DNA of 64,000 nucleotides from Shimia sagamensis (GTDB taxonomy: Bacteria > Pseudomonadota > Alphaproteobacteria > Rhodobacterales > Rhodobacteraceae). The DNA lies in contig NZ_FXTY01000009.1 of the NCBI RefSeq assembly GCF_900182745.1, forward strand, positions 62,001-126,000. Reading direction: 5' to 3'. The translations under genes were made by a program, and so were the position numbers. Positions 23,928 through 41,896 of the stretch are shown here, in pieces. The number at the start of each line of letters is the position of its first letter. The first letter of the stretch is position 1. The notes beneath the pieces were generated by a model, which saw nothing but the letters and a program-made list of their open reading frames with translations, ran no database searches and was not told the DNA's origin.

Positions 23928-23952
23928 GATTTAGAAGTTGAAAAGCGCTGGT

Positions 23953-26542: not shown

Positions 26543-26557
26543 AGGCGAGACAAGAAG

Positions 26558-26878
26558 ATGGTCAAATTGAAGTTTGTTCAGTCAAACGGCACTGAAATCG
26601 AAACCGACGCAGCGCTTGGCATGTCCGTCATGCAGGCGGCTGTTAATGCCGGGGTGAATGAGATTGCGGCGGAATGCGGAGGGGCCTGCGCGTGTGGAAC
26701 TTGTCATTGCGTTTTGCCACAGGAGTGGTTTGACCGAGTTGCTGCGCCTCAAGATGACGAAATTGACATGTTGGAGTTTGTCATTGAGCCGCAACCAACC
26801 AGCCGGTTGAGTTGCCAGATCGTGGTGAGCGAAGACTTGCAAGGCATGGAGATCAACGTGCCGGACTCGCAGGTCTAA
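26558..26878 (+). CDS. [2Fe-2S] ferredoxin (putidaredoxin/adrenodoxin type)
   Basis: The 106-residue protein has the exact cluster spacing C-x5-C-x2-C-x36-C (C40, C46, C49, C86), in AECGGACACGTCHC and RLSCQIVV, of vertebrate-type ferredoxins that feed P450s. MLEFVIEPQPTSRLSCQ matches putidaredoxin-like proteins. It should carry electrons from a reductase encoded elsewhere to the upstream P450. Its stop overlaps the start of the AraC regulator gene (TAATG), so the P450, ferredoxin and regulator form one transcription unit. Confidence 0.95.
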   Translation: MVKLKFVQSNGTEIETDAALGMSVMQAAVNAGVNEIAAECGGACACGTCHCVLPQEWFDRVAAPQDDEIDMLEFVIEPQPTSRLSCQIVVSEDLQGMEINVPDSQV

Positions 26879-27720: not shown

Positions 27721-29533
27721 TTTGTTCCAGGGCCTCCAGATGAATTGCCGTGGTTTTCTTTTTTCCGCTGAGTTTGACGGAGAGCATGCTTTCCAGTGTG
27801 AAGTAGGCGCGCATGAGACGGAATACAGTGTACTCCGGCAGGCAAAGAACAGCTCGAGGTGTGCGGTTTATCAGCACTGCAGCCACCCCAACCAAGGTCG
27901 GAGCGCCAAGAATAACGGCGGCTATTGCGGTCCAAAGTGGGCGCGGCCCTGTGCCGAAAGGTTCCAGAAACTCGATTAGGCCAAATATCACCAGCGGCAA
28001 ACCCATTGTGCGCACTGATGTGTTGAGCAACATGATGGGTAAGATAACCCAGCCACGCAGGGATGGATTTCCAATTTCGGTTGCCTGTCGGCAGCGGGCT
28101 GTGATGTGGAAAGCGGATCGAAACCAGCGCATGCGTTGTTCGCGCATGTGCGCGTAAGTGGCTGGCACTTCGGACTCATAGCGCACGTAAGGATCTACTT
28201 GTATGCGGTAGCCCAATTCGCCGATGCGCATCGACATATCACTGTCTTCGCCATTGAGGCCAAAGGCAAATCCGCCAAGGTGACGAACGAGTGCAGAACG
28301 ATAAACGGCAAACATACCCGGAATGGCAACCTGCCCGTCGATGGCGGTGTTGGCGATGGCGTAATAGCCGTGATTGATCAAAACTTCGGCCAAACGGGCA
28401 CGCTCGAAAAAGGAACGGCCTTGGGTGTTGGGTACGCCTCCTAAACATCCGAGTTGCGGATCCTTAAAATGCCTCAGTGCCAAGTGCAGGGAGTCTTTGT
28501 CTATCTGTGTGTCCGCGTCGATGCGGATGACGAGTTCTGTCTGGACAGCGGCAAAACCTTTATTGAGGGCATGCGCCTTACCCGCACGAGGCTCGTTGAT
28601 GACACGGCCTTCAGCATTTTCAAAAGAGGCGAATGTGGCCTGCGCCACGTCGAAGGTTGCATCAACGGAGTTGTTATTGACCACATAGACAATGACACGC
28701 CCTTTGTAGTGACCAGCAGCCCTGTCCACCGCCTTGAGCGTGTCGGCAATAATGTATTCTTCATTGTGAGCCGGAATGACGATGGTCACGTCCTGATCGA
28801 AGTCATCAGTTTGATCTTCTTTTCGCCGGTCCCACATTGCCAAGAAATACATCAACAAGAAGAATGAAGGCAGGAACAGAAACACTCCTGGTCCCAGTCC
28901 ACCCAGCAATGCTCTGCCGCGTAGCCACGTCACGGTTTCCAGGTCCAGTTGATTGACCCACCAAGAAAAAACGCCTGCGGCAGCGACAAGTATCCAAAAC
29001 CGGCCGAAAGAACGGCCGGGATGTGTTGGTGTGACTTTCATGTGCACGGGTGAGGGCATTTCGCCCCAAGAATACAGGCGAGCAGAGAACAGAGCGAAGC
29101 CAACCAAACCTGTCGCGATTTGCAGGTTTCTGAGAGAAATTGGAGCGTCAAAGCTGTGCGACAAGAAAACTGAAAAGAGGTCGATGGCAAGACAGATCAC
29201 AAGAAAAGACAGGCAAAGATCTGCAATGAACTTAAGTCTTGTGAGGAACGGGCCGTTTGAAAACAGGCCAAAACTCACAAAAAAGACAAGCAGGAAATGC
29301 CGGATTGCAATGAAGTGTTGCCCCGGCACCGGCGCAAAGATCCAATCGTTGGCGGGAAAAAAAGCGCCCAACAGAGTGTCGTTTTGCAGAACAATCAAAG
29401 TGAGCATACTCAGGATCGCAAAGGTCGCCAGAACCGCAGGAGCTTTCCAAAGCGCAACGGGGCCGGACAGCTTGGCGGGCTGGCTGTCGACGGACCAGTA
29501 TTCGTTTTGGGATGCTTTCTGCGGTTGGCTCAC
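27659..29533 (-). CDS. Membrane-bound family 2 glycosyltransferase
   Basis: I chose the GTG at 29533 (MSQPQKASQNEYW), because upstream in-frame codons run back through the sqdB terminator into sqdB. The 624-residue protein has about five N-terminal membrane helices, then a GT2 catalytic domain with VTIVIPAHNEEYIIADTLKA, the metal-binding RIDADTQID, GEDSDMSMRI and the QRMRWFRS (QxxRW) acceptor motif, then more helices. This is the layout of processive beta-glycosyltransferases. The donor and acceptor are unknown. It lies 73 bp downstream of sqdB on the same strand, though a terminator intervenes. Its 3' end overlaps the AraC gene by 62 bp. Confidence 0.85.
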   Translation of the reverse strand: MSQPQKASQNEYWSVDSQPAKLSGPVALWKAPAVLATFAILSMLTLIVLQNDTLLGAFFPANDWIFAPVPGQHFIAIRHFLLVFFVSFGLFSNGPFLTRLKFIADLCLSFLVICLAIDLFSVFLSHSFDAPISLRNLQIATGLVGFALFSARLYSWGEMPSPVHMKVTPTHPGRSFGRFWILVAAAGVFSWWVNQLDLETVTWLRGRALLGGLGPGVFLFLPSFFLLMYFLAMWDRRKEDQTDDFDQDVTIVIPAHNEEYIIADTLKAVDRAAGHYKGRVIVYVVNNNSVDATFDVAQATFASFENAEGRVINEPRAGKAHALNKGFAAVQTELVIRIDADTQIDKDSLHLALRHFKDPQLGCLGGVPNTQGRSFFERARLAEVLINHGYYAIANTAIDGQVAIPGMFAVYRSALVRHLGGFAFGLNGEDSDMSMRIGELGYRIQVDPYVRYESEVPATYAHMREQRMRWFRSAFHITARCRQATEIGNPSLRGWVILPIMLLNTSVRTMGLPLVIFGLIEFLEPFGTGPRPLWTAIAAVILGAPTLVGVAAVLINRTPRAVLCLPEYTVFRLMRAYFTLESMLSVKLSGKKKTTAIHLEALEQITLPHESLLENGAVRTPGDA

Positions 29534-29552
29534 CCGAAATCTCTGATTGAAG

Positions 29553-29590
29553 GAAAAAATACCGGCCCGATTATTGTATCGGACCGGGCG
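29553..29590 (-). terminator. Terminator downstream of sqdB
   Basis: On the minus strand CCGGTCCGAT pairs with ATCGGGCCGG (one mismatch) around a 6-nt loop, followed by TATTTTTT. It lies between the sqdB stop and the glycosyltransferase start. Ts also follow on the plus strand, so it may be bidirectional. Confidence 0.8.
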
Positions 29591-29606
29591 TGTTTTTGGG
29601 AAGAAA

Positions 29607-30839
29607 TTATGCAGCCGGTTGAACTTGACCCGCAATCAGCGCCTCTTTGGTCACAACGCCTGCGTGCTGCTCTTTGGTCCAGATGGAAGCGGCAGCCACT
29701 GTGGCGCTGTCAAAACGCTCTGCATAGCGTTCGGCGATTTCCACGGTTTCTTCCAACAGACCTTCTTCCAGAGTTGTCGGTTTCAGACCGAGTGCGATGA
29801 AACTTGCATTGCTGACGCGCAGGTCGTTTTCGGCGGCCTCTTTGCGTGGGTTGTCAACCATAGCCACTTGCGCACCGTTTGTGGATGCCACGAGTTTTGC
29901 CAGGTCCCGCACACGGTGCGTTTCAGTCATCTGGTTGCGGATCACAACACGGTCGCCTTTAGCGGGTGGGTTTTCAATGGCCAGGCGGATGCAGCGCACC
30001 GTGTCCCGAATGTGAATGAATGCGCGGGTTTGACCGCCTGTGCCGTGCACGGTCAGGGGGTGACCAACAGCGGCTTGGACCAGAAAGCGGTTGAGGACTG
30101 TGCCGTAATCACCGTCATAGTCGAACCGGTTGATAAGGCGATCATCCAGTTTTGTTTCCGGTGTCTGGGTGCCCCATACGATCCCTTGGTGCAGGTCCGT
30201 GACGCGGATCTGGTCGTTTTTTGCGTAAAACTGGAACAGCAACTGATCCATCGATTTGGTCATGTGGTACACGCTGCCCGGGTTGGTGGGGTAGAGGATC
30301 TCACGCTGGTAAATGACATTGTCATCGCCTGCCACCATCACCTTTTGATAACCTTCGGGAATTTCCAACCCATCGCCATCGTAGCCATAGACGCCCATTG
30401 TGCCGAGGTGGACAACGTGGGTGTCCAGATCAAGCGCGGCGATCGCAGCCAAAATATTGTGGGTGGCGTTGATATTGTTGTCCACAGTGTAGCGTTTCTC
30501 GGTCAGGCCGCGCATGGAGTAGGGGGCCGCGCGTTGCTCACCAAAGTGGACAACCGCTTCTGGCTTTAGCTCTTCCAGCAGCGCGTGCAAGGCATCAAAC
30601 TGCTGAGATGCGTCGATGTTTTCGAAGCGAATGGTGTTGCCGCTGACTTCTTTCCAAGCGGTCAGGCGGTCCTCCATGGATGCGATAGGCGTGAGGCTTT
30701 TGGCGCCCAGCTCCTCGTCGATCCGCCGGCGAGACAGGTTGTCCACAATTGTGACATTGTAGCCGCCACGCGACAGATGCAAAGATGTTGGCCAGCCGCA
30801 GAAACCGTCGCCGCCGATGACAATGATATTTTTTTCCAT
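29607..30839 (-). CDS. sqdB: UDP-sulfoquinovose synthase
   Basis: The 410-residue NAD-dependent enzyme belongs to the extended SDR group. It makes UDP-sulfoquinovose from UDP-glucose and sulfite, the head-group donor for the sulfolipid SQDG. The Rossmann loop is GGDGFCG (9-15). The catalytic triad is T147 in GTMGVYGYDG, Y191 and K195 in SVYHMTKSMDQ, as in plant SQD1. RGGYNVTIVDNLSRRRID is typical of SqdB. I start at the ATG at 30839, with GGAGGGAA upstream. The usual partners sqdD and sqdC are not seen; the neighbour is a GT2 glycosyltransferase. Confidence 0.95.
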   Translation of the reverse strand: MEKNIIVIGGDGFCGWPTSLHLSRGGYNVTIVDNLSRRRIDEELGAKSLTPIASMEDRLTAWKEVSGNTIRFENIDASQQFDALHALLEELKPEAVVHFGEQRAAPYSMRGLTEKRYTVDNNINATHNILAAIAALDLDTHVVHLGTMGVYGYDGDGLEIPEGYQKVMVAGDDNVIYQREILYPTNPGSVYHMTKSMDQLLFQFYAKNDQIRVTDLHQGIVWGTQTPETKLDDRLINRFDYDGDYGTVLNRFLVQAAVGHPLTVHGTGGQTRAFIHIRDTVRCIRLAIENPPAKGDRVVIRNQMTETHRVRDLAKLVASTNGAQVAMVDNPRKEAAENDLRVSNASFIALGLKPTTLEEGLLEETVEIAERYAERFDSATVAAASIWTKEQHAGVVTKEALIAGQVQPAA

Positions 30840-31043: not shown

Positions 31044-32162
31044 TTAAAAAGTCCAACGTGCACCAGCCAGAAGAGCCAGGCTGTCTTGATACTGGGCTGT
31101 GGAGTCGGTGTATTCGTACCGGCGCAGGAGCGCATAAAGGTCAATTTTGGGGGATTTAATCTTTTGGACAATTGCGATGCCGTAGGAGCGGCTGGAGCTA
31201 CTTTGAACTGGCGATGATCTGTTTTGGTAGATGTCATCCCCATCGTACATGTCAATCGAGATTGCGGTTTGGCCAATATCAAACCAGCGGCCGATGTATC
31301 CGATTTTGCCGTAGTAGTAATTCGCGCCGCTAGTTTCGTGCCCCGTGGCCAGGGTAACATTCCAACCGCTAGGGCGGTGAAGCAAAGAGCCGGAGGCGAT
31401 AGCCACATTCGGGCGTTCTTCGATCCATCGGAACGCACCTCCCGCCCGAATACGGAAGTCCCCGTGATCTCCGTCGTATCGCAGCGAAGTGTCTGCATAG
31501 AGTTGGTCATCATTGTACGAAAGAACTTCTTGACCCGCAGCGGCAACAAATTGCCAACCATTATTGATTGGGGCGTCAAAGCGTAAGCGCAGTCGACGGG
31601 AGCTTCCCATCGATCGGAAAGCCTGTTTAATTTTCTTATTGCTGGGATCGTAAGCGCCATTGGGGACCAAAAATTGCCCACCGGCGGCGTCTTGGACAGG
31701 TGTGCCCGCAACAACAGTGGTTAAAGACAAATCGAGGCCCGTGATGCCGTCCGCCGACATGGCGCCTTGACCTAGTGTAATCCTACCGAAGGTGTCATGG
31801 ACAAACCCAACCTCAAGTTTTCTAAGCTCGGTCCGGTCAAACTTGTATGCCTCATCGTGTGGATCGTTCCGATTAACGGCATTTGTTTCTTTCCACTTCA
31901 GCGCAATTTCTCCACGCGCGTGGAGGCGCCAGCCATTTTCCAAAGGTGTGTCAAAAGTCGCGCCAAGGCGAGAAACGGATTTGGAATTGTCGACAAACCA
32001 ATAGGTGTGATCCGTCGGGCCATCGTCATACCGCAGCACGCCCCTGTTGATCTGGCCATAAACAGCAAACCCTTGGGATGGGGTTTCCTTCTGCTGGGAT
32101 ACGGCAACAGAGGCGGCGCAAGCCGCAAACGCAACTCCAAAAAATAAGTTTCCTGTACGCAT
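31044..32162 (-). CDS. Outer-membrane porin
   Basis: The 372-residue protein has a signal peptide (MRTGNLFFGVAFAACAASVA) and an alternating polar/hydrophobic pattern of beta-strands. It opens with GFAVYGQINRGVLRYDDG and ends LALLAGARWTF, with the C-terminal Phe required for outer-membrane insertion. SVSRLGATFDTPLENGWRLHARGE and GRITLGQGAMSADG are typical of alphaproteobacterial general porins. It lies 112 bp downstream of the sugar-catabolic operon on the same strand and may be its dedicated outer-membrane channel, as OmpG is for the ycj genes. Independent transcription is also possible. Confidence 0.82.
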   Translation of the reverse strand: MRTGNLFFGVAFAACAASVAVSQQKETPSQGFAVYGQINRGVLRYDDGPTDHTYWFVDNSKSVSRLGATFDTPLENGWRLHARGEIALKWKETNAVNRNDPHDEAYKFDRTELRKLEVGFVHDTFGRITLGQGAMSADGITGLDLSLTTVVAGTPVQDAAGGQFLVPNGAYDPSNKKIKQAFRSMGSSRRLRLRFDAPINNGWQFVAAAGQEVLSYNDDQLYADTSLRYDGDHGDFRIRAGGAFRWIEERPNVAIASGSLLHRPSGWNVTLATGHETSGANYYYGKIGYIGRWFDIGQTAISIDMYDGDDIYQNRSSPVQSSSSRSYGIAIVQKIKSPKIDLYALLRRYEYTDSTAQYQDSLALLAGARWTF

Positions 32163-32274
32163 GAAGCCTCCCTCCCGCAGGTATCAGAAGGGATGTGCCG
32201 CAGCGATTCAAGTAAAAGCCAGAGCGGCGCAAGAAATTGCGGCGATGTGGCAACAGGCCTAACGTGCTTCCAAA

Positions 32275-33390
32275 TTAAAGCGCGTGCCAAGCGCTGTTTG
32301 CGACTGAGGATTGTTGACAGGCATGGATGAAACGCATCCCTGCCACACCGTCTGACAGCCTGGGCACGTCCTTTGCTGCATCAGTTTTGCCGGCCAAAGC
32401 ACAGGCTATGTCGCGGTAAAGGGTGGCAAAGGCTTCCAGGTAACCCTCCGGGTGGCCAGCCGGGATACGAGACACCGCGTTTGCTGCGTCTCCAGCGCCA
32501 GACCCTGCGCGTGTGATACGTTGTTCAACGCCGCCCAATGCGGTGAATATCAATTGATTTGGGTTTTCTTGCTCCCAAAACAGTCCGCCTTTTGTCCCGT
32601 GAATGCGCAGTTTAAGCCCATTTTCGGATCCTGTTGCCACTTGGCTTGCAAAGATTGATCCGCGAGCGCCAGACCCGAACCTTAATAGGATGTTGGCGTT
32701 GTCATCCACTTTCCGCCCTTCCACAAAGCTGTTGAGATCGGCGGCCAGGTGGCTGGCTTGTTCATTCAAAACGAATGTCGCGAGGTGATAGGCGTGGGTG
32801 CCAATATCCCCTATGGCGCCCGCGCCCCCGGTACGGGATGGATCGGTGCGCCAAGCGGCTTGCGCATTTTCTGGTTCCGCCGGGCGAGAAAGCCAATCTT
32901 GCAGATATTCCGCATGGATCAGGCGGATGTCACCCAAGTCGCCGTTGGCGACCATCGCTTTGGCCTGACGGATCATAGGGGTGGCGCTGTAGTTGTGGGT
33001 CAGGAAGAAATGGTGTTCGTAATTTTCGCACTCCGCTGCAAAAGCTTCGGCTTGGGCCAAATCTGTGGTCAGAGGTTTGTCACAAAGAACATGGATGCCG
33101 GCCTGCAAAAAGGCGCGGGCAATCGGGATGTGCATATGGTTCGGAGTTACAATTGAAACGGCATCGATCCCATCTGTGCGGGCGCGCTCACGCGCTGCCA
33201 TTTCTTCGAAAGAGCTATAGCTGCGTGCCAACCCCAAAACTTCTGCGCTGCGATGAGCTTTCTCGGCGGTGGACGAAAGGCAGCCGGCAACCAGATCCCA
33301 ATGGCCGTCCAGGTTAGCTGCCATCCGATGTACCGCTCCGATGAAAGCCCCATCTCCGCCGCCAACCATGCCCAATTTCAGTTTACGCAT
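32275..33390 (-). CDS. Gfo/Idh/MocA family sugar dehydrogenase (first of two)
   Basis: The 371-residue protein has an N-terminal Rossmann fold with GMVGGGDGAFIGAVHR and catalytic Lys in CDKPLTTDLAQ, where the common EKP motif reads DKP. The C-terminal sheet domain carries GGAGAIGDIGTHAYHLATF with the active-site Asp and His. It resembles the glycoside 3-dehydrogenase/ThuB group, which oxidises the C3 hydroxyl of glucosides with NAD. It is the last enzyme gene of the sugar operon, 8 bp after the TIM-barrel gene. The substrate is inferred only from context. Confidence 0.88.
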   Translation of the reverse strand: MRKLKLGMVGGGDGAFIGAVHRMAANLDGHWDLVAGCLSSTAEKAHRSAEVLGLARSYSSFEEMAARERARTDGIDAVSIVTPNHMHIPIARAFLQAGIHVLCDKPLTTDLAQAEAFAAECENYEHHFFLTHNYSATPMIRQAKAMVANGDLGDIRLIHAEYLQDWLSRPAEPENAQAAWRTDPSRTGGAGAIGDIGTHAYHLATFVLNEQASHLAADLNSFVEGRKVDDNANILLRFGSGARGSIFASQVATGSENGLKLRIHGTKGGLFWEQENPNQLIFTALGGVEQRITRAGSGAGDAANAVSRIPAGHPEGYLEAFATLYRDIACALAGKTDAAKDVPRLSDGVAGMRFIHACQQSSVANSAWHAL

Positions 33391-33398
33391 GTGATTTC

Positions 33399-34454
33399 CT
33401 AAAGTCCAAGTAAAGCACGGGTGTCAGCTTTGCTGAGGCCGCTGTCCGCAAAATCATCAAAGGCTTTTTCAGTAACCTTGATGATGTGATCGGCGATGAA
33501 GGGTGCGCCTTCGGCCGCGCCCGTAGCCGCGTCTTTGAGGCAGCACTCCCACTCCAGCACAGCCCAGCTGTCATATCCGTATTGGGCCAGCTTTGAAAAG
33601 ATTGCACCAAAATCGACCTGACCGTCTCCGAGGGAGCGGAAGCGCCCCGCACGTTGTATCCAAGGTTGATAGCCAGAGTAGACACCTTGACGGCCATCAG
33701 GACGGAACTCTGCGTCTTTCACGTGAAAAGCAGTGATGCGTTCATGGTAGATGTCGATGAACGCAAGATAGTCCAGCTGTTGAAGCAGAAAGTGACTCGG
33801 ATCATAGTTGATTGTGCAGCGTCTATGGCCATTGAGGCGATCGAGCAGCATTTCGAAGGTTGCGCCGTCAAATAGGTCTTCGCCTGGGTGCAGCTCAAAC
33901 GCGATGTCCACGCCAACCTCGTCATAGGCATTCATGACTGGGAGCCATCGTTTGGCCAGTTCATCAAATGCCTCTTCTATCAAACCCGCTGGACGTTGAG
34001 GCCAGGGGTAGAGATAGGGGAAGGCCAGAGACCCGGAGAAGCTCACCGAAGTGGTGAGGCCGAGGTTTTGGGAGGCCTTCGCGGCCTTGAGCAATTGATC
34101 ATGGGCCCAGTCCTGGCGCGCTTTGGGGTTGGCGTGCACGGTCACGGGGGCAAAGCCGTCAAACTGTTTGTCATAGGCTGGATGTACCGCGAGCAATTGG
34201 CCTTGAATGTGGGTGGAGAGTTCTGTGATCTCCATCTCGCGATCGGCCAACACGCCTGTAACCTCGTCGCAATAGGTTTGTGAAGTTGCGGCCTTGTCCA
34301 GATCAAAGAGCCGCATATCCCCTGACGGGATTTGTAACCCCTTGTAGCCCAGAGCCGCCGCCCAGTCGGCAATGGCCTCCAAGGAATTGAAGGGCGCTTC
34401 ATCTGAGGCAAACTGTGCAAGGAACAGTCCGGGGCCTTTGAGGTTGGACGGCAT
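33399..34454 (-). CDS. Sugar isomerase/epimerase-type TIM barrel protein (long)
   Basis: The 351-residue protein is of the xylose-isomerase-like TIM-barrel family. Probable metal ligands are visible in order: Glu in IAFELHPGEDLF, Asp in INYDPSHFLL, His in ITAFHVKDAEF and Glu in WAVLEWECCL. It has an extended insertion near YSGYQPWIQRAGRFRSLGDG. Such proteins isomerise, epimerise or lyse sugars, including 3-keto sugars. Its ATG overlaps the stop of the upstream dehydrogenase gene (TGATG). Together with the second TIM barrel at 35587 it could supply elimination and hydration steps. Confidence 0.88.
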   Translation of the reverse strand: MPSNLKGPGLFLAQFASDEAPFNSLEAIADWAAALGYKGLQIPSGDMRLFDLDKAATSQTYCDEVTGVLADREMEITELSTHIQGQLLAVHPAYDKQFDGFAPVTVHANPKARQDWAHDQLLKAAKASQNLGLTTSVSFSGSLAFPYLYPWPQRPAGLIEEAFDELAKRWLPVMNAYDEVGVDIAFELHPGEDLFDGATFEMLLDRLNGHRRCTINYDPSHFLLQQLDYLAFIDIYHERITAFHVKDAEFRPDGRQGVYSGYQPWIQRAGRFRSLGDGQVDFGAIFSKLAQYGYDSWAVLEWECCLKDAATGAAEGAPFIADHIIKVTEKAFDDFADSGLSKADTRALLGL

Positions 34455-35584
34455 CAGGTCTCCTCCAGTTCCATAATGGCAAAGGCATCATCTGCACCAA
34501 AGGGCGCTGGACGCTCGCAAGTGCTTTGGATGTCCACGGAATTGCCGGTGTCACCAGACTGCAGAATTGCGCCCATAACTTCGACGACATGCAGCGCCAA
34601 CTCGTTGTTGCAGCGGTGCTGTCGTCCGTCTCGGATGGCGGCAGCCATGTCGGCCAATCCCGCACCACGGTAATTGGCGTTTTCACCGTCGTTGGGTTTG
34701 GAGAAGGGATGACCCGTTGAAATCAGAGCTTCGTCATCGTCACTGCGCACAAGCCGCAGTTGGCCGCCAAAGAAGTTGGGATCTGGGACGAAGAGGGTGC
34801 CGTCCAATCCATAGAGTTCCATATTGTTGTGTTCATGGGATTTCACATCCCAGCTGGTGCCATAACTGATGATGGCTCCGTTTGTGAACTTCAGGATCGA
34901 ATGTACAGTGGTCGGGGTCTCAACTGGGACTTGCTCGCCGCTGCGCGGACCGCAAGCAATCGTGCGGTGGTTGCGAGGAGTGCTGCTAAATGCGGTGACG
35001 CTTTTCACTGGTCCGAGCAATTGTACGAGGTTGGTTACGTAATAGGGGGCGAGGTCAAAGATGGGACCGGCACCGGGAAGGAAAAAGAAGTCCGGGTTCG
35101 GATGCCAATGCTCCATACCACCGCTCATCACATGGATCGTCCCTGAGGTCACCTGCCCGATGTCGCCGTTGTCTAACAGTTCTCGAGCCTTTTGGTGGCT
35201 GCCACCCATAAATGTGTCAGGAGCTGAGCCGATGCGCAGATTGCGGGTTGCCGCAAGTTCAGACAATTGTGCGCCTTCCTCGGCGGTTAGCACAAATGGC
35301 TTCTCCGAATACACGTGCTTGCCAGCGCTCAGGATTTGGCTGGACACCTCAAAGTGCGCTGCAGGAATAGTCAGGTTCACGACAATTTCGATTTCGGGGT
35401 TCGCCAAGAGGTCTTCAATGCTCAAGGCCTGCAAATCAAACTCAGCAGCCCGTGCTTCGGCTGCTTCGGTATTCAAATCGGCGCAAGCCACAACTTTGTA
35501 GTCTTTGAAAAACTGCCCCATGCGCATGTAGGTTGTGGAGATGTTGCCGCATCCGATGATGCCAACTTTTACTGCGGAGCTCAT
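34454..35584 (-). CDS. Gfo/Idh/MocA family sugar dehydrogenase (second of two)
   Basis: I start at the ATG at 35584 (MSSAVKVGIIGCGNIS), 2 bp after the upstream gene; a TTG two codons earlier is less likely. The 376-residue protein has GIIGCGNIS for NAD binding, catalytic Lys in HVYSEKPFVLT, and a C-terminal domain with GAGPIFDLAPYYVTNLVQLLG, where the position after the Asp is not the HHxxD-type histidine of the first dehydrogenase. The two dehydrogenases are clearly different and probably act at different steps, one oxidising and one reducing. Part of the sugar operon. Confidence 0.88.
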   Translation of the reverse strand: MSSAVKVGIIGCGNISTTYMRMGQFFKDYKVVACADLNTEAAEARAAEFDLQALSIEDLLANPEIEIVVNLTIPAAHFEVSSQILSAGKHVYSEKPFVLTAEEGAQLSELAATRNLRIGSAPDTFMGGSHQKARELLDNGDIGQVTSGTIHVMSGGMEHWHPNPDFFFLPGAGPIFDLAPYYVTNLVQLLGPVKSVTAFSSTPRNHRTIACGPRSGEQVPVETPTTVHSILKFTNGAIISYGTSWDVKSHEHNNMELYGLDGTLFVPDPNFFGGQLRLVRSDDDEALISTGHPFSKPNDGENANYRGAGLADMAAAIRDGRQHRCNNELALHVVEVMGAILQSGDTGNSVDIQSTCERPAPFGADDAFAIMELEET

Positions 35585-35586
35585 AA

Positions 35587-36333
35587 TCAAATGTCCTTCA
35601 GGTTGGCCATGGATACGGAAGCAAAGCGCACCGCGTCGCTAGGATTGTCTTGTTCCGCAATCAGGAGGGCGTTTGGGGCCTGGGCGCGAATTTGCCGGAT
35701 CAAGCCTGGCCAATCCATTACGCCTTCACCGATGTCGGACCAGCCGTCCTCGTCCAGCCCTTCGCCGGCCTTGGCGATGTCCTTTACATGTACGGCGATG
35801 AGACGGTCGGCGTATTTTTCCACGATGGGGGCCGGGTCTAGGCCGGCACGGGCAACCCAGCCCAAGTCCGCTTCCCAGCTGATATCAGGCGCGGTACGAA
35901 GGATGATGTCCATCGGGTAACTACCGTCCTCTAGCGCTTCAAATTCGAAGTCGTGGTTGTGCCAGGAGAAGGTCCTACCGGTTTCGCGGACCTTAGCACC
36001 GATCTCCGACAGTTCCCTAGCTAAGGCTTGCCAGCCGGCCTTGTCGGTAGGGCGGGCCTCAGCCTCGAGGTAAGGCACGATCACGTGTTTGATGCCAAAT
36101 GTGTCCGCGAGCATCATGACGTTGTCGAAGTTGTCGCGCAGATCGTTGATGCCAAAGTGACCACTGGGCATCGTTAGGCCGCTTGCGGACATCGCTGAGA
36201 AAAACGACTGCGGATCGTCATAGACGCCTCCATAGCCTTCGACGCTGGTGTAGCCCAGTTCCGCAAGTTGGGAGAGGAAGATTTCTTGGCTCGCGACGTT
36301 GCGCGAAGAGTACAGTTGGAATGAGAAGCTCAT
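35587..36333 (-). CDS. Sugar isomerase/epimerase-type TIM barrel protein (short)
   Basis: The 248-residue protein is a compact xylose-isomerase-like TIM barrel. Likely metal ligands lie in FSWHNHDFEFE, SWEADLGWVARAG, LIAVHVKDIAKAG and LLIAEQDNPSD. The family includes 3-keto-sugar hydratases/lyases and IolE/YcjR-like enzymes. It lies between the ATPase gene (21 bp upstream) and the second Gfo/Idh gene (2 bp downstream), so it is the first catabolic enzyme gene in the operon. The exact reaction cannot be read from sequence. Confidence 0.88.
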   Translation of the reverse strand: MSFSFQLYSSRNVASQEIFLSQLAELGYTSVEGYGGVYDDPQSFFSAMSASGLTMPSGHFGINDLRDNFDNVMMLADTFGIKHVIVPYLEAEARPTDKAGWQALARELSEIGAKVRETGRTFSWHNHDFEFEALEDGSYPMDIILRTAPDISWEADLGWVARAGLDPAPIVEKYADRLIAVHVKDIAKAGEGLDEDGWSDIGEGVMDWPGLIRQIRAQAPNALLIAEQDNPSDAVRFASVSMANLKDI

Positions 36334-36354
36334 GTAAGTCTCCAGAAATGAGCG

Positions 36355-37437
36355 TCAAAGACGCTTTTCAGTTGTTTTGTCAAAGAGGGATCCCTGGGCG
36401 GGGTCAAAGCCGATTTTGAGCGTGTCACCTGCGGCGACGGAGGCCTTTCCGCTCATTCGGAACCGGAATGGGGTTCCAGCCAGCGTGGTGTATATCAGCG
36501 TGTCCGATCCCATCGGTTCCACAAGCTCAACGGTAATATCAGCAGTGAATGGCTGCTGCGCCACATCGGTACCGGTAATCACAGCTTCAGGACGGATGCC
36601 AAGCCATGCTGGGCGTGCTGTTAGGGCACCTTGTGTGGCTTCATATCCCGTGAGTGGGAAGTGCAAGTCTGCGGAAAGAAATTCACGTCCGCCGTCGGTG
36701 ATCGAACCCTCGAAGAAATTGATGGTAGGGGAGCCAATGAAGCCAGCGACATACTTGTTGGATGGGCGGTCATACACTTCTGACGGGCTTGCAATCTGTT
36801 GCACCACGCCGCCACGCATGATCGCAATACGGTCAGCCAAGGTCATGGCTTCCACTTGATCGTGTGTCACATAGATCATGGTGTTGTCGAGTTTTTGGTG
36901 GAGGAGTTTGAGTTCCACCCGAAGGTCTGCCCTTAGTTTGGCGTCCAGATTAGACAGAGGTTCATCAAACAGGAAAACATCCACGTCACGTACAAGCGCG
37001 CGGCCAATGGCAACCCGCTGCCGCTGGCCTCCGGAAAGAGCTGCGGGTTTGCGCTTCAAGAGTGGCTCGATTTGTAGGATTTCAGCGGCGCGCGCAACCC
37101 GCTTTGCTATCTCCGGTTTTGGGACGCGCGCATTCTTGAGGCCAAAGGAGAGATTTCCCTCTACTGACATTTGCGGGTAGAGCGCGTAGGATTGAAACAC
37201 CATTCCGATGCCGCGCTCTGACGGTTCTTCCCAGGTGACATTTCGACCACCGATGTGGATTTCGCCATCGGAAATGTCGAGCAAGCCGGCAATGCAATTG
37301 AGCAAAGTAGATTTGCCGCAGCCCGACGCCCCTAGGAGAACTAGAAATTCACCTTCCTGAATGTCGATGTTCAGTTTGTCCAGAACTCTGACGGCGCCAA
37401 AATCGAGGGTCAGGTCTTTTACGGTTACATTGGTCAT
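36355..37437 (-). CDS. Sugar ABC transporter ATP-binding protein (UgpC/MsmK type)
   Basis: The 360-residue ATPase has Walker A GASGCGKST, signature LSGGQRQR, Walker B FLFDEPLSNLD and YVTHDQVEAMTLADRI with the switch His. The C-terminal TOBE/OB domain begins near residue 235 (VAGFIGSPTINFFEGSI). This is the multi-sugar importer ATPase type, which can serve several CUT1 transporters. It is 2 bp downstream of the permease gene and upstream of the enzyme genes. Confidence 0.93.
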   Translation of the reverse strand: MTNVTVKDLTLDFGAVRVLDKLNIDIQEGEFLVLLGASGCGKSTLLNCIAGLLDISDGEIHIGGRNVTWEEPSERGIGMVFQSYALYPQMSVEGNLSFGLKNARVPKPEIAKRVARAAEILQIEPLLKRKPAALSGGQRQRVAIGRALVRDVDVFLFDEPLSNLDAKLRADLRVELKLLHQKLDNTMIYVTHDQVEAMTLADRIAIMRGGVVQQIASPSEVYDRPSNKYVAGFIGSPTINFFEGSITDGGREFLSADLHFPLTGYEATQGALTARPAWLGIRPEAVITGTDVAQQPFTADITVELVEPMGSDTLIYTTLAGTPFRFRMSGKASVAAGDTLKIGFDPAQGSLFDKTTEKRL

Positions 37438-37439
37438 GG

Positions 37440-38381
37440 TCAGCCCTTTACTGCGCCAGCGGCAATGCCGCGCACGAAGAGTTTGCCGGAGGCAAAATAA
37501 ATGATGAGGGGAACAAGGCCGGTGAGCATCGTCGCGGCCATGTTGACGTTGTATTCTTTCACACCTTGCACCGAATTCACGATGTTGTTGAGTTGCACCG
37601 TCATTGGGTACGTATCAGGCTTGGTAAAAATCACGCCAAAGAGGAAGTCGTTCCAGATGCCGGTGACCTGCAGGATGATGGCCACGACAAAGATCGGCAG
37701 CGCCATTGGCAGCATGATCTGAAAATAGATCTGCCAGAAGCCTGCTCCGTCCACGCGAGCAGCCTTGAACAGCTCCTCGGGAACTGAGGCAAAGTAGTTG
37801 CGGAACAAGAGGGTCAGGATGGGCATGCCGAAGATGGTGTGTACAATCACAAGCCCCCAAATGCTGCCCATAAGACGGATTTTGGTGCCTGTAACCGCTG
37901 AAAGAACCTCCCCAGCTTCTCGCAAAAGGATCACAATTGGATAGATCATCACTTGATAGGGAATGAAGGCGCCAAAAATCAGTATGGTGAAAAAAACCTC
38001 TGAGCCTTTGAACTTCCAAAGGGACAGTGCGTAGCCATTGATTGATGCGATAGCGATGGAGATCACCACTGACGGGACCAATATCTGTACTGAGTTCCAG
38101 AAGCCGCGAGACAGTCCGTCGCAATTTATGCCTGTACATGCTTGAGCCCATGCTTTGACCCAAGGTTCGAATGTGACCTCAACCGGAGGTGCAAATACAT
38201 TACCAAGGCGAATTTCTGGCATGCCTTTTAGTGAGGTCACGAGCATCACATAAAGCGGCAGAAGATAGTAAACAGAGGCAACAAAAAGCGTGCCATAAAG
38301 CATGATATTGGTGGGCGTGAGGCGTTTGCGAGGCTTGGCGCCGCGTGGAGTTACGCCCAAGTTGGAAGGTGCATCAGTCAC
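37440..38381 (-). CDS. Carbohydrate ABC transporter permease (MalG-like)
   Basis: I chose the GTG at 38381, which has GGAGG 8 nt before it; a TTG five codons earlier would remove that site. The 313-residue protein has six probable membrane helices and the ATPase-contact loop ELFKAARVDGAGFWQIYFQI. The segment FGAFIPYQVMIYPIVILL and final LFVRGIAAGAVKG are typical of CUT1 MalG-type permeases. It overlaps the upstream permease gene by 8 nt. Confidence 0.92.
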   Translation of the reverse strand: MTDAPSNLGVTPRGAKPRKRLTPTNIMLYGTLFVASVYYLLPLYVMLVTSLKGMPEIRLGNVFAPPVEVTFEPWVKAWAQACTGINCDGLSRGFWNSVQILVPSVVISIAIASINGYALSLWKFKGSEVFFTILIFGAFIPYQVMIYPIVILLREAGEVLSAVTGTKIRLMGSIWGLVIVHTIFGMPILTLLFRNYFASVPEELFKAARVDGAGFWQIYFQIMLPMALPIFVVAIILQVTGIWNDFLFGVIFTKPDTYPMTVQLNNIVNSVQGVKEYNVNMAATMLTGLVPLIIYFASGKLFVRGIAAGAVKG

Positions 38382-39306
38382 GGCGTTTGCCTCCAAATTC
38401 GAGATAGGCCCATGGGATCAAAACGACGAGGACCGAGAGTAGCATCATGGTGGACGCAGCGAAGCCTTGACCGAGGTTTTGGGATTGGAACATTTTCTCG
38501 ATGACGTATTTGGCGGGAACTTCGGAGGAGATGCCTGGACCCCCGGACGTCTGGGCCACAACCAAGTCATAGACTTTGATGATGCCGGCTGCGATCAGCA
38601 CAAGAGCCGTCACAAATATCGGGCGCATCATCGGAATGATGATAAAAATGTATGTTTTCCAAGCCGGGATGCCTTCGACGCGAGAAGCTTTCCAGATGTC
38701 TTCATCAATTCCACGCAAACCAGCAAGAAGGATTACCATTATGAAGCCGGAGCCTTGCCATATGCCCGCGATGAGAATGCCGTATATGACAATGTTGGCA
38801 TTATTGAGCGGATCAAATGTGAAACTTTCCCAGCCCCATCGCTGGACAACACCTTGAATGCCGAATTGTGGATTCAGAATCCACTGCCAGACTAGGCCGG
38901 TGACAATGAAGCTGAGCGCGAACGGATATAGAAAAATCGTGCGAAAAATGCCCTCGCCACGGATTTTCCTGTCCAGAAGTGCGGCCAGAGTGAAGCCAAT
39001 TACCAAACTCAAGACAAGCGAGCAGATGCCGTAAATCGCTAGGTTCTCTATCGACACCAGCCAGCGACGTGTGCTCCACAAGCGCTCGTATTGGTCCAAG
39101 CCGACCCACTTTTCTGGTGCTGGCAGCAATTTGGATTTGGTGAACGAGTGGTAGATCGTCCAAACAGTACATCCAATGAACACCACAAGAGCGGTGAAAA
39201 TCATTGGTATGGTGGCGATTTTCGCCGTCATGTTTTTGAAGAGGCGGTTTGGTCGCTTGGAAATGGTCCGTCGGGACACTTCCTGCGCACCATCGGTCAC
39301 AGCCAT
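38374..39306 (-). CDS. Carbohydrate ABC transporter permease (MalF-like)
   Basis: The 310-residue protein has six probable membrane helices, a basic N-terminus (RRTISKRPNRLFKN) and the ATPase-contact loop DIWKASRVEGIPAWKTYIFI. FRTIFLYPFALSFIVTGLVW matches CUT1 MalF-type permeases. It is separated from the binding-protein gene by 107 bp containing a strong hairpin, and overlaps the second permease gene. Confidence 0.92.
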   Translation of the reverse strand: MAVTDGAQEVSRRTISKRPNRLFKNMTAKIATIPMIFTALVVFIGCTVWTIYHSFTKSKLLPAPEKWVGLDQYERLWSTRRWLVSIENLAIYGICSLVLSLVIGFTLAALLDRKIRGEGIFRTIFLYPFALSFIVTGLVWQWILNPQFGIQGVVQRWGWESFTFDPLNNANIVIYGILIAGIWQGSGFIMVILLAGLRGIDEDIWKASRVEGIPAWKTYIFIIIPMMRPIFVTALVLIAAGIIKVYDLVVAQTSGGPGISSEVPAKYVIEKMFQSQNLGQGFAASTMMLLSVLVVLIPWAYLEFGGKRRD

Positions 39307-39382
39307 GGCTTAAGTCTCCAGCCTGACGTGAGAAAGCAACACATCAGGTTCGATTGGGGAAATTGGGGTGGTGTACAAGTTG

Positions 39383-39404
39383 GGAGCCCGGCGTGTCGGG
39401 CTCC
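39383..39404 (-). other. Strong GC hairpin between binding-protein and permease genes
   Basis: Perfect 8-bp arms GGAGCCCG (39383-39390) and CGGGCTCC (39397-39404) enclose a 6-nt loop. No U-tract follows. In sugar ABC operons, hairpins in this position protect the upstream binding-protein message from decay, so the binding protein is made in excess. Confidence 0.65.
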
Positions 39405-39413
39405 TCAACAGGG

Positions 39414-40643
39414 TCAGTCGGCTTCCGCGATGATTTCAGCGTATTTCGCTTGAGCATCTGCCGCTGAGTATGATGAGTCATTCCAGAACTCGACCATCAG
39501 ATCTTCGATCTGGCCTGAAGTGTCTGCTGACAGAACCTGATCACCCGATTGCAGGATGTTGCCTGCCGCCAGGATTTCCAGACCCTTTTTCATACAATCG
39601 TTGGCTGAAGAGAGGTCGATGTCTCCCCGCACAGGCAATGATCCCTTCTTCAAGTTGAAGTTCACCTGGACTTCAGGACTTAGCAGGAGTTTTGCCAGTT
39701 CCTTCTGAGCGGCTTCGATCTCTGGATCGTCTTGCTTAGGGAAGTAAAATGCGTCACCACCGGTGGAGATAATTTCGTTTACACCCAGCCCGGGCAGGCA
39801 CGTGTAATCCTGTCCTGCAACCTGTCCGGCGACTTGAAATTCACCTTGTGCCCAATCGCCCATGACTTGACCGCCGGCTTGGCCGGTGATCACGAGATTG
39901 GTCGCTTGGTTCCAGTCCTGAACTTTCGAGTTGGCGGCCATTGCACGCGCGGCAGCGGCGGCCTCAAAAACCTTCGCCATCTCGGGGCCGGCTGCAGCTT
40001 CAGCATCTTTCTCGACATTGATTTTGTTCCAGAGATCTGGGCCACCAACGGCAACGTTAATAACACCAAATGCGCCTGAGGACTGCCAAGCCTGCTGTCC
40101 CATTGCGAGAGGGATTTTCCCGGCGTCTTCCAGGGCTTTTGCGGAAGCAACAAATTCATCCCAGTTGGAAGGAACAGCTACACCTGCATCAGAGTAGGCC
40201 TGATGGCTGAGCCAAATCCACTGCCAAGAGTGAATGTTAACCGGGGCGCAATAGATCTTGCCATCAACTGTACAGCTGTCGAGCAGGGATGTCGGGTTCA
40301 CCAGGTCAGTCCAACCTTCAGCCTCCGCCACGTCTGTCAGGTCCAACATCAGCCCTGCTTCAATCAACTCCTCGGCCTGGCGCCCGTGGTTGAGCTGGGT
40401 GGCGTGCATGGGGTCGCCGCCGATTATGCGGCTGACAATGATCGGGCGTGCGGTGCCGCCTGAGCCCGCAATGGCGCCATCAACCCAGGTATTACCTGTG
40501 GCATCAAAGGCTTTGGCAAATTCTGAGACAGCGGCTGCTTCTCCACCTGAAGTCCACCAGTGGGTGACCTCCAACTCGGCCGCGGAAACAGCGCCGGCTG
40601 AGCAGAATGCAACAGCTGCTGTGGTTGCTTTGTAATAGTTCAT
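39414..40643 (-). CDS. Carbohydrate ABC transporter substrate-binding protein
   Basis: The 409-residue precursor has a signal peptide (MNYYKATTAAVAFCSAGAVS, cleaved near SAA) and a mature start ELEVTHWWTSGGEAAAV, the CUT1 family 1 pattern seen in glucose/glucoside-binding proteins. Four cysteines may form disulfides (LLDSCTVDGKIYC; YTCLPG; NDCMKKG). It would capture a sugar or glycoside in the periplasm. First gene of the operon; its ribosome-binding site GGGAGGA is clear. It is divergent from the LacI regulator gene, with two palindromic sites between. Confidence 0.92.
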   Translation of the reverse strand: MNYYKATTAAVAFCSAGAVSAAELEVTHWWTSGGEAAAVSEFAKAFDATGNTWVDGAIAGSGGTARPIIVSRIIGGDPMHATQLNHGRQAEELIEAGLMLDLTDVAEAEGWTDLVNPTSLLDSCTVDGKIYCAPVNIHSWQWIWLSHQAYSDAGVAVPSNWDEFVASAKALEDAGKIPLAMGQQAWQSSGAFGVINVAVGGPDLWNKINVEKDAEAAAGPEMAKVFEAAAAARAMAANSKVQDWNQATNLVITGQAGGQVMGDWAQGEFQVAGQVAGQDYTCLPGLGVNEIISTGGDAFYFPKQDDPEIEAAQKELAKLLLSPEVQVNFNLKKGSLPVRGDIDLSSANDCMKKGLEILAAGNILQSGDQVLSADTSGQIEDLMVEFWNDSSYSAADAQAKYAEIIAEAD

Positions 40644-40657
40644 ATTTTCCTCCCAAT

Positions 40658-40693
40658 ATCGACCAACAAGGCCGTATCGACCAACAAGGCCGT
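40658..40693. repeat. Tandem 18-bp duplication in the promoter/leader region
   Basis: The unit ATCGACCAACAAGGCCGT occurs twice with no gap, at 40658-40675 and 40676-40693, exactly between the ribosome-binding site of the binding-protein gene and the first LacI-type palindrome. It lengthens the leader by 18 bp and looks like a recent slippage event. Confidence 0.9.
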
Positions 40694-40706
40694 GTAATCG
40701 ATTACA
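40693..40706. promoter_or_regulatory. LacI-type operator, proximal copy
   Basis: Perfect 14-bp palindrome TGTAATCGATTACA with the central CG typical of LacI/PurR family sites, 50 bp upstream of the binding-protein ATG. An identical copy lies 85 bp away, nearer the regulator gene. Confidence 0.85.
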
Positions 40707-40777
40707 TATCCTCCCAGAACATCACCGTGGCAACCGCGCCCCATGAAGGGGGCAATTGCGGCGCATTGACAGCAACG

Positions 40778-40791
40778 TGTAATCGATTACA
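40778..40791. promoter_or_regulatory. LacI-type operator, distal copy
   Basis: Second exact copy of TGTAATCGATTACA, 56 bp upstream of the LacI-family start codon. The surrounding bases GTGTAATCGATTACATATC also match the first copy. The 85-bp spacing is close to eight helical turns, so both sites face the same side of the DNA and could be bridged by a tetramer. Confidence 0.85.
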
Positions 40792-40846
40792 TATCGGTAG
40801 CTCCGTCGGTCGATGTGAGTCAAGAAATAATTTGAGGCGCAAAATA

Positions 40847-41896
40847 ATGACACTGCAGCGAAAGCCCAAAGTTATCGACGTCGCGCGCCTCTCCGGGGTT
40901 TCAACCGCAACGGTCAGTAGGGTATTGAACGACCCTGCAGTGGTGTCGGAAGCAACGAGGGAAGCGGTTTTAGCGGCGGTTAAGCAGACAGGATATCGCG
41001 TAAATCGAGCGGCCCGAAGCCTTAGAACCAATACGTCCCGTACAATCCTCGCTTTGGTCCCCAATTTGTCCAACCCTTTCTTTTCCAACATCCTTTCCGG
41101 CCTGGAAAGGGAATTGAGCGCCGCAGACTACAGCTTGTTGATCACTGACAGTGGTGACGCAAAGCTGACGGCGGATCATATTCAGCGCTACGTTGCAGCA
41201 GGCCAGGCGGACGGGTTGATCATTTTGGACGGTGGAGTTGACTTGCAGCAGCTTGAGGTTGTGCAGTCAGCCGCTCCAACTGTGCCAATTGTGTTTGCCT
41301 GTGAGTGGGTCGAAGGTTTCAAAGGGGCGTCGGTTCGAGCGGACAATGCAGGGGGGATTCGGATGTTAGTGGATCATCTTTGGCAGCTAGGACATAGAAA
41401 ATTTGGACACGTCTCCGGCCCGGACACAAATGTACTGTCGCACTATCGCCAACGCGCGTTTGAACAACATGTTGTTGATCTGGGTGGTGAGCTACGGCCT
41501 GAATGGATACTGCCAGGTGACTTTTCCATCGCGGCTGGTAAACACGCGGCCGCACAAGTGATCAACATGCCGGAGAAACCGACAGCTTGGATTTGCGCAA
41601 GTGATCAAATCGCGTTTGGCTTAATCGCGGGCCTAACAGAGGCAGGGGTGCGGGTTCCGGCAGATGTGTCTGTGACAGGCTTTGACAATATCGAGATGAC
41701 GGAAGTGTTTAACCCGCCGTTGACCACGATTCACCAGCATCGCAATAAAATGGGGAATGAAGCCGCGCGCAGATTATTAGCGCAACTTCATGACTATGAG
41801 ACTGAGGTCAATACGCCAACTGTAATGCCGGTTTATTTGGTGGAACGCCAAAGCACGGGGCCTGTCTCGAAAAAGGTCGAGATGTGCTCCCCGTAA
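40847..41896 (+). CDS. LacI family transcriptional regulator
   Basis: I start at the ATG at 40847, after GAGG; earlier codons in the frame would translate both operators. The 349-residue protein has the LacI helix-turn-helix IDVARLSGVSTATVSRVLND, hinge NRAARSLRTNTSRTI, and a periplasmic-binding-protein-like sugar domain with ILALVPNLSNPFFSNILSG and PADVSVTGFDNIEMTEVFNP. It should repress the divergent sugar operon and itself until the inducing sugar binds. Its stop is 2 bp from the stop of the convergent moaA. Confidence 0.95.
   Translation: MTLQRKPKVIDVARLSGVSTATVSRVLNDPAVVSEATREAVLAAVKQTGYRVNRAARSLRTNTSRTILALVPNLSNPFFSNILSGLERELSAADYSLLITDSGDAKLTADHIQRYVAAGQADGLIILDGGVDLQQLEVVQSAAPTVPIVFACEWVEGFKGASVRADNAGGIRMLVDHLWQLGHRKFGHVSGPDTNVLSHYRQRAFEQHVVDLGGELRPEWILPGDFSIAAGKHAAAQVINMPEKPTAWICASDQIAFGLIAGLTEAGVRVPADVSVTGFDNIEMTEVFNPPLTTIHQHRNKMGNEAARRLLAQLHDYETEVNTPTVMPVYLVERQSTGPVSKKVEMCSP

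What the first reader, a model, noticed from the sequence alone, without database searches (positions are those of the whole stretch)
31044..41896. Candidate 3-keto-sugar catabolic cluster with dedicated importer, regulator and porin
Seen: a divergent LacI regulator, a CUT1 importer (binding protein, two permeases, ATPase), two TIM-barrel sugar isomerase/epimerase-like proteins, two distinct Gfo/Idh/MocA dehydrogenases and a porin, nearly all tightly packed on one strand. Known: E. coli ycj-ompG has the same component types (ABC importer, Gfo/Idh enzymes, YcjR TIM barrel, LacI-type YcjW, OmpG), and the bacterial levoglucosan route uses two Gfo/Idh and two TIM-barrel enzymes for oxidation, elimination, hydration and reduction. 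Inferred: this cluster imports a glycoside or anhydrosugar and opens it through a 3-keto intermediate without a classical glycosidase. No glycoside hydrolase, phosphorylase or kinase gene is present, which argues for this chemistry. The substrate is unknown; algal sugars would fit a marine host.
Basis: partly seen in the sequence, partly recalled or inferred. Interest (0 to 1): 0.75.

Follow-up and report, generated by a model that had tools for sequence, protein, structure and literature searches.

The report
Glucoside-splitting sugar operon without hydrolase
This is a conserved bacterial operon that most likely imports a beta-glucoside and splits it inside the cell by oxidising, eliminating, re-hydrating and reducing the sugar instead of hydrolysing it, a recently discovered kind of sugar metabolism seen here with a different first enzyme and a dedicated importer.

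Summary
In detail: porin, two Gfo/Idh proteins, two TIM barrels, a CUT1 importer and a divergent LacI lie at 31044-41896 (LacI starts at 40847). The 3-keto reading is largely right and can be made specific. The 248-aa TIM barrel keeps all five metal/catalytic residues of the Agrobacterium O-glycoside beta-eliminase AtOGE; the 351-aa one is a close homologue of the 2-hydroxy-3-keto-glucal hydratase AtHYD. Oxidation, elimination, hydration and reduction is thus a published scheme; levoglucosan, inositol and ycj assignments fail. Step 1 differs: Agrobacterium uses a flavin GMC dehydrogenase; here a Gfo/Idh clade (GfoA) sits beside the eliminase in 60 of 61 GfoA loci, with a glucose-type CUT1 importer and no room for an export signal on the eliminase. 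Two TGTAATCGATTACA palindromes, the only exact copies in the genome, lie before importer and LacI; such sites occur in 27 of 27 loci with the LacI orthologue and 1 of 20 without. The no-hydrolase argument is weak: 14 of 38 orthologous operons carry GH43 or GH2. An algal substrate is unsupported. Verdict: new variant of a known kind; probable substrate beta-glucosides, untested.

The parts
31044..32162 (-). Outer-membrane porin (Porin_4), 372 aa; accessory, found only in near relatives' loci
   Evidence: Pfam PF13609 E 1.7e-12; porin in 3 of 38 orthologous loci; 112-bp gap to GfoB (coordinates)
32275..33390 (-). GfoB: Gfo/Idh/MocA oxidoreductase, proposed NADH-dependent 3-keto-glucose reductase (step 4)
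   Evidence: Nearest solved relative 3v5n E 9e-128, named only 'Oxidoreductase'; below LgdA/IolG cut-offs; GfoB-like gene in 73 of 80 HYD loci; D-x-x-x-H motif
33399..34454 (-). HYD: 2-hydroxy-3-keto-glucal hydratase (step 3)
   Evidence: 8RO4 AtHYD, E 2.6e-158, residues 4-351
34454..35590 (-). GfoA: Gfo/Idh/MocA dehydrogenase, proposed NAD-dependent glycoside 3-dehydrogenase (step 1); first codon TTG 35590, or ATG 35584
   Evidence: Own clade, 100/99, in tree; K97, D179, Y183 invariant in 37 sequences; OGE adjacent in 60 of 61 loci; AlphaFold pLDDT 82.9
35587..36333 (-). OGE: 3-keto-O-glycoside beta-eliminase, TIM barrel, no room for an export signal (step 2)
   Evidence: 8BVK AtOGE E 2e-34; H125, H127, D156, H182, E227 invariant in 36; Foldseek's first five rows are 3-keto-glucopyranoside lyases and AtOGE; no in-frame start 15 or more codons upstream
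36355..37437 (-). CUT1 ABC importer ATPase (UgpC/MalK type)
   Evidence: NCBIfam NF008653 437.6 bits, over cut-off 432
37440..38396 (-). CUT1 permease 2
   Evidence: PF00528; best NCBIfam GlcU, below cut-off
38374..39306 (-). CUT1 permease 1
   Evidence: PF00528; best NCBIfam GlcT, below cut-off
39414..40643 (-). Solute-binding protein with signal-peptide-like start, related to solved ABC sugar-binding proteins incl. a glucose-binding protein
   Evidence: 5xpj/5dvf E about 1e-71, 2b3b glucose-binding protein E 2e-30; that 5xpj/5dvf are Pseudomonas glucose-binding proteins is recalled
40693..40706 (.). Operator O1, perfect palindrome TGTAATCGATTACA, starting 50 bp upstream of the SBP start
   Evidence: Exact copies only here and at O2 in the 4.5-Mb assembly; site present with LacI in 27 of 27 loci
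40778..40791 (.). Operator O2, same palindrome, 55 bp before the LacI start; 85-bp spacing to O1
40847..41896 (+). LacI-family repressor, divergent, 349 aa
   Evidence: PF00356/PF13377 (run from 40844); start

Best explanation
A LacI-repressed operon for cytosolic, hydrolase-free use of a small O-glucoside. The CUT1 importer brings the intact glucoside in (inferred from SBP homology). GfoA oxidises the sugar at C3 with NAD+ (inferred). OGE removes the aglycone or leaving sugar by Mn-dependent beta-elimination, giving 2-hydroxy-3-keto-glucal (by homology with conserved catalytic residues). HYD adds water to give 3-keto-glucose (by close homology). GfoB reduces it to glucose with NADH (inferred from HYD linkage and family). 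The net reaction is hydrolysis, the cofactor reduced in step 1 being re-oxidised in step 4. LacI binds the paired palindromes between the divergent genes and is released by the sugar or a keto-intermediate (inferred). Beta-linked glucosides are the likeliest substrates, because AtOGE prefers beta over alpha aryl-glucosides and cleaves 3-keto-cellobiose but not 3-keto-maltose.
For: OGE matches AtOGE (8BVK, E 2e-34, 122 bits; next best 58 bits) with His132, His134, Asp163, His189 and Glu233 all conserved (residues from PMC10628242 passages), invariant in 36 homologues. The OGE model (pLDDT 95.6) is closest by Foldseek to 3-keto-beta-glucopyranoside-1,2-lyases AL1 and BT1 and to AtOGE, with YcjR at rank 38. 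HYD matches 8RO4 AtHYD at E 2.6e-158. OGE lies beside GfoA in 60 of 61 loci; 17 of 38 loci have GfoA+OGE but no HYD/GfoB, which makes GfoA the likeliest source of OGE's keto-substrate. Operator. SBP. AtOGE anomer preference. Cytosolic OGE: 41 of 60 GfoA-linked OGE genes, the window's included, have no in-frame start 15 or more codons upstream.
Confidence: 0.74

Rival explanations
1. Levoglucosan or another anhydrosugar is the substrate, i.e. an Lgd-type pathway.
Against: Both proteins are far below the LgdA cut-off (51 and 145 against 650); GfoA is separate from LgdA-like rows (themselves below that cut-off) in the tree; relative G242 has a true LgdA (713 bits) with a CUT2 importer at one locus and the GfoA operon at another.
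Confidence: 0.08
2. An inositol-type or free-sugar pathway (IolG/IolE-like), not glycoside cleavage.
For: GfoA's first Foldseek rows are scyllo-inositol dehydrogenase; GfoB is related to an 'inositol dehydrogenase homolog' 7d5n; both TIM barrels hit the IolE model weakly.
Against: IolG and IolE cut-offs are missed by far (76 and 55 against 355; 57 and 46 against 290); the genome has its own IolG over cut-off elsewhere (438 bits); OGE and HYD match a named eliminase and hydratase much better.
Confidence: 0.06
3. A ycj-like 3-keto epimerisation pathway that converts one glycoside epimer into another.
For: Shared parts: ABC importer, Gfo dehydrogenase, TIM barrel, LacI, porin.
Against: No zinc-type YcjQ and no phosphorylases among the operon's genes; YcjR ranks 38th for OGE by Foldseek and 36th by VIA-align; a hydratase homologue is present.
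Confidence: 0.05
4. Oligosaccharide module: the 3-keto enzymes handle one type of terminal residue of a mixed beta-linked oligosaccharide (xylose- or mannose-containing) and cytosolic hydrolases remove the others.
For: 14 of 38 orthologous loci carry GH43 (11) and/or GH2 (6), between importer and enzymes or after GfoA; four of the GH43 loci also have the window-type LacI with HYD-GfoB.
Against: The window's operon and its closest relatives (L143, L144, L163-L168) have neither hydrolase.
Confidence: 0.3

Closest known systems
Agrobacterium tumefaciens non-hydrolytic glucoside pathway (GlycDH-AtOGE-AtHYD-Gfo; Bitter 2023 PMC10628242, abstract, passages and section 11 read; Kastner 2024 Angew Chem, seen only as a reference)
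   Same: Same eliminase family with all catalytic residues, very close hydratase, a Gfo oxidoreductase in the same operon
   Different: First step here by a Gfo/Idh protein instead of a GMC flavoprotein with Tat-type partner; CUT1 importer and LacI in the operon
Gut Bacteroidetes 3-keto-glycan pathway (AL1/BT1 lyases 8TCD, 8TCT; Nasseri 2024 Nature, seen only as a reference; that these structures belong to that paper is recalled)
   Same: Eliminase fold closest by Foldseek; dehydrogenase structures 8tdh and 8tdi are Gfo/Idh relatives of GfoB
   Different: OGE here is nearer to AtOGE by sequence (122 against 58 bits); ABC import; other dehydrogenase clade
Bacterial levoglucosan pathway (LgdA-LgdB1-LgdB2-LgdC; PMC7676230, passages)
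   Same: Order of reactions: oxidation, elimination, hydration, reduction
   Different: Neither dehydrogenase reaches the LgdA model; a true LgdA locus in a relative has a CUT2 importer and no HYD within 19 kb
E. coli ycj-ompG
   Same: ABC importer, one Gfo dehydrogenase, TIM barrel, LacI-type regulator, porin
   Different: ycj has YcjQ (zinc dehydrogenase) and two phosphorylases; YcjR is annotated as a 4-epimerase, not an eliminase
Puerarin C-glycoside pathway (DgpA and C-glycoside eliminase)
   Same: Gfo/Idh 3-oxidation then beta-elimination; DgpA shares the best E-value of GfoA in PDB (2e-17)
   Different: C-glycoside eliminases are unrelated in sequence to AtOGE (abstract of PMC10628242)

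Membership tests
Agrobacterium-type O-glucoside beta-elimination pathway | OGE-type eliminase with His132/His134/Asp163/His189/Glu233 | tested here: met
   All five aligned and conserved; invariant in 36 homologues
Agrobacterium-type O-glucoside beta-elimination pathway | AtHYD-type hydratase | tested here: met
   E 2.6e-158, residues 4-351
Agrobacterium-type O-glucoside beta-elimination pathway | GMC flavoprotein GlycDH with its Tat-type partner in the operon | tested here: not met
   No such gene among the operon's genes; the genome's 6 GMC matches all lie outside the window
Agrobacterium-type O-glucoside beta-elimination pathway | Gfo oxidoreductase orthologous to the Agrobacterium one (WP_038490970.1) | tested here: inconclusive
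Agrobacterium-type O-glucoside beta-elimination pathway | Conversion of 3-keto-glucosides to glucose in vitro | not testable with these tools
   Needs enzyme assay
Levoglucosan (Lgd) pathway | LgdA equivalog NF052479, cut-off 650 bits | tested here: not met
   145 and 51 bits; own genome has no match at E 1e-100
myo-Inositol catabolism | IolG TIGR04380 and IolE TIGR04379 cut-offs | tested here: not met
   76/55 against 355 and 57/46 against 290; separate IolG in the genome
E. coli ycj-ompG type | YcjQ-type zinc dehydrogenase and sugar phosphorylases | tested here: not met
CUT1 sugar ABC importer | SBP_bac_1, two BPD permeases, MalK-type ATPase with TOBE_2 | tested here: met
Local LacI-family regulon | Even palindrome with central CG at the divergent promoter, conserved with the regulator | tested here: met
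   motif rules from PMC4052901 passages

The most novel reading that the evidence does not exclude
The 3-keto route is modular. A front module (oxidise and eliminate) exists in two compartments: a periplasmic GMC + exported eliminase, and the cytosolic NAD-dependent GfoA + OGE with its own CUT1 importer seen here. A common back module (HYD+GfoB) serves both, and where it sits alone with a CUT2 importer, as at a second locus of this very genome, it imports and finishes 2-hydroxy-3-keto-glucal or 3-keto-glucose released outside the cell, i.e. scavenges an unstable keto-sugar as a shared nutrient.
Probability: 0.35. Interest if true: 0.62.

Novelty: new variant of a known kind. Interest (0 to 1): 0.43.

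Why it matters
It would put hydrolase-free glucoside use into about a quarter of the sampled genomes of one family (GfoA in 82 of 295, own genome included), where annotation reads only 'sugar phosphate isomerase' and 'Gfo/Idh oxidoreductase'. It names a testable first enzyme, a testable operator (TGTAATCGATTACA) and a named strain that carries the operon (Phaeobacter inhibens DSM 17395, plasmid pPGA1_78), and suggests that 3-keto-sugars may move between cells.

Tried and rejected
Levoglucosan, inositol and ycj assignments were tested and rejected. Fold comparison to name GfoA's substrate led nowhere: rows are nearly tied. By Foldseek DgpA, which oxidises sugar C3, is rank 30, just above GFOR at 33; by VIA-align GFOR is rank 2 and the 3-ketoreductase KijD10 rank 38. 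No protein close to OGE was found beside the true LgdA (best 12 bits). A consensus promoter/terminator scan gave no more than shuffles (3 promoters against mean 7.2; 15 terminators against 13.0). The pSymB record meant for ThuB carries no annotation there, so ThuB was not compared. Paper searches: nothing with Phaeobacter inhibens and PGA1_78p tags, nothing with 4 of 6 terms on Phaeobacter/Roseobacter and 3-keto or glucoside; these cover only the open library. The first gene calling in relatives was spoiled by antisense ORFs and replaced by a codon-model version, which is approximate. My first support for a cytosolic OGE (alignment) was void, because my script always took the nearest start codon; one search replaced it: 19 of 60 genes do have a start 15 or more codons upstream, 4 of these with a hydrophobic stretch (L113, L121, L046, L049, the last three 228-561 codons long). 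In the tree the non-Gfo YcjQ row was kept (branch 9.5), L007 was dropped because no ORF was found, and deep branches are weak; the tool warns that a long own-genome row joins GfoA.
Full report
What is there. Eight genes on the minus strand run from the binding protein to GfoB. After a 107-bp gap behind the binding protein they are tightly packed: the permease ORFs overlap, OGE and GfoA overlap by 4 bp (or lie 2 bp apart if GfoA starts at ATG 35584), GfoA and HYD meet at 34454, HYD and GfoB are 8 bp apart. The porin follows after 112 bp. LacI runs the other way and starts at 40847, not at the ORF's first codon 40607, which would overlap the binding-protein start.

The two dehydrogenases. GfoB (32275-33390) is closest to 3v5n (E 9e-128), then to 3dty and 7d5m/n; the last two are titled inositol dehydrogenase homologues. 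A GfoB-like gene (44% or more identical) lies in 73 of 80 HYD loci, which include genomes labelled Acidobacteria, Gemmatimonadetes and Chitinophagales or Cytophagaceae, as a Gfo reductase belongs to the AtHYD operon of Agrobacterium. GfoA (34454-35590) has no close solved relative; DgpA and 3evn share the best E-value (2e-17). In a tree of 36 proteins GfoA orthologues form one clade (100/99), apart from the genome's IolG and from LgdA-like rows; deep branches are weak and long-branch warnings apply. Lys97 (EKP), Asp179 and Tyr183 are invariant in 37 orthologues; Tyr183 stands where GfoB, YcjS, IolG and LgdA-like rows have His. That GFOR and KijD10 use such a Tyr is recalled; a Y186F mutant of KijD10 is listed. 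Neither dehydrogenase reaches the curated cut-off of any NCBIfam model it hits.

Conservation. GfoA orthologues (E<=1e-90) are in 82 of 295 genomes of the family, own included; at E<=1e-60 in 13 of 24 genomes of the genus, own included, and 0 of 16 others in that call; and in 14 of 337 genomes drawn from the class, own and two family members included. So the operon is accessory. Of 61 loci with a full GfoA ORF (the window itself included and at least one species twice), 60 have OGE beside it. In 38 larger loci, fetched because they hold GfoA (L143-L180, a choice among the genomes): OGE 38; SBP, permeases and ATPase 37; HYD and GfoB 21; window-type LacI 19; another LacI 16; GH43 11; GH2 6; porin 3 (gene calls and clusters approximate). 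Window-type LacI occurs only with HYD-GfoB (19 with, 0 without); of the 19 loci without it, 2 have HYD. Pfam confirms one representative each as GH43 with the beta-xylosidase C domain and as a GH2-type protein with a mannosidase Ig domain.

Regulation. Two perfect copies of TGTAATCGATTACA (40693-40706 and 40778-40791) lie between the divergent genes; they are the only exact copies in the 4.5-Mb draft assembly, three further places having 2 mismatches. Scanning the region before the binding protein in 47 loci (one of 48 dropped, no SBP) with at most 2 mismatches: 27 of 27 loci with the LacI orthologue (43% or more identical) have the site, 26 of them twice; 1 of 20 loci without it has one; 0 of 47 reversed control regions. 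Eight of the 27 are near relatives of the window. An even palindrome with central CG near the divergent start is the rule for LacI factors (PMC4052901, passages).

Alternatives to the first step. In Agrobacterium the first step is a flavoenzyme with a Tat-type partner. The Palleronia plasmid locus L187 shows a GMC version in a relative: HYD, GfoB, CUT2 importer, an OGE-like protein with a signal-peptide-like start, GMC, subunit 3, DUF1080. Of 6 loci with a GMC match, 4 have an OGE-like protein, and 3 of these 4 can begin with an export-like segment, judged by eye. Of 60 GfoA-linked OGE genes, 41, the window's included, have no in-frame start 15 or more codons further upstream and so no room for a signal; of the other 19, 4 have a hydrophobic stretch, three of them in extensions of 228-561 codons. 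Among 54 HYD loci of at least 18 kb (of 80 kept from a capped list), 14 have GfoA, 13 of these with this CUT1 importer and 3 also with a CUT2 gene; 3 have GMC; none has both GfoA and GMC; 15 have CUT2 (cut-offs are mine). No GMC locus there has CUT2, so the link between GMC and CUT2 rests on L187. I read this as two compartments for the same chemistry; that is an inference.

The same genome holds a second HYD-GfoB pair (64% and 53% identical) behind a CUT2 importer without OGE or GfoA in the 17 kb read. This leaves open that the back half alone finishes keto-sugars taken up from outside.

What it works like and what it is. It works like the four-step oxidation, elimination, hydration and reduction route described for levoglucosan (PMC7676230, passages), for Agrobacterium glucosides (PMC10628242) and, as recalled, in gut bacteria (Nasseri 2024, reference only). 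It is not a member of the levoglucosan, inositol or ycj systems by the tests made. It shares two tested enzymes with the Agrobacterium system but lacks that system's GMC first enzyme, so it is filed as a variant.

Substrate. AtOGE prefers beta over alpha linkages and cleaves 3-keto-cellobiose but not 3-keto-maltose. The binding protein is related to solved ABC sugar-binding proteins (E about 1e-71) and to a glucose-binding protein (2b3b, E 2e-30). Both point to beta-glucosides, but no direct evidence exists. The absence of a hydrolase in this operon is not an argument by itself, since orthologous operons carry GH43 or GH2 and the host has a GH1 at C1:725666-726955; its only GH3 match is in a 348-aa frame, of NagZ size (recalled). 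Levoglucosan is unlikely: relative G242 carries a LgdA of 713 bits at one locus and a GfoA operon with GH2 at another.

Verdict. Novelty is moderate: the pathway is in print; the GfoA front step, its paired operator and its spread were not met in the open papers searched, which leave out most subscription journals.

Noticed in passing
window 17605-18581 (-): An IolG-like gene looks split: the family model matches residues 2-278 in one frame (17757-18578) and 274-329 in another (17605-17772), while an intact IolG lies at C1:43840-44817. Pseudogene or sequencing error; not examined further.
   Followed up: partly
G000:C1:252675-254578 (L181:7670-9876): Second HYD-GfoB pair (64%/53% identical to the window's) behind a LacI and a CUT2 importer, with no eliminase or GfoA in the 17 kb read.
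   Followed up: partly
window 25241-27720 (+): Cytochrome P450, 2Fe-2S ferredoxin and AraC-type regulator in a row, divergent from an ABC operon (21057-25074) that looks like a polyamine-type importer (by eye).
   Followed up: no
window 27659-30839 (-): NAD-dependent epimerase and a family-2 glycosyltransferase directly downstream of the porin; the epimerase resembles SqdB (recalled). Both follow the porin in 3 relatives too (L163-L165).
   Followed up: no
window 40658-40693: An 18-bp stretch (ATCGACCAACAAGGCCGT) is repeated head to tail between the binding-protein start and operator O1.
   Followed up: no
L184 (NC_018287.1, Phaeobacter inhibens DSM 17395 plasmid pPGA1_78): The operon lies on a 78-kb plasmid of a roseobacter, split into two divergent halves: regulator-HYD-GfoB and SBP to GfoA.
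   Followed up: partly
   Followed up: yes
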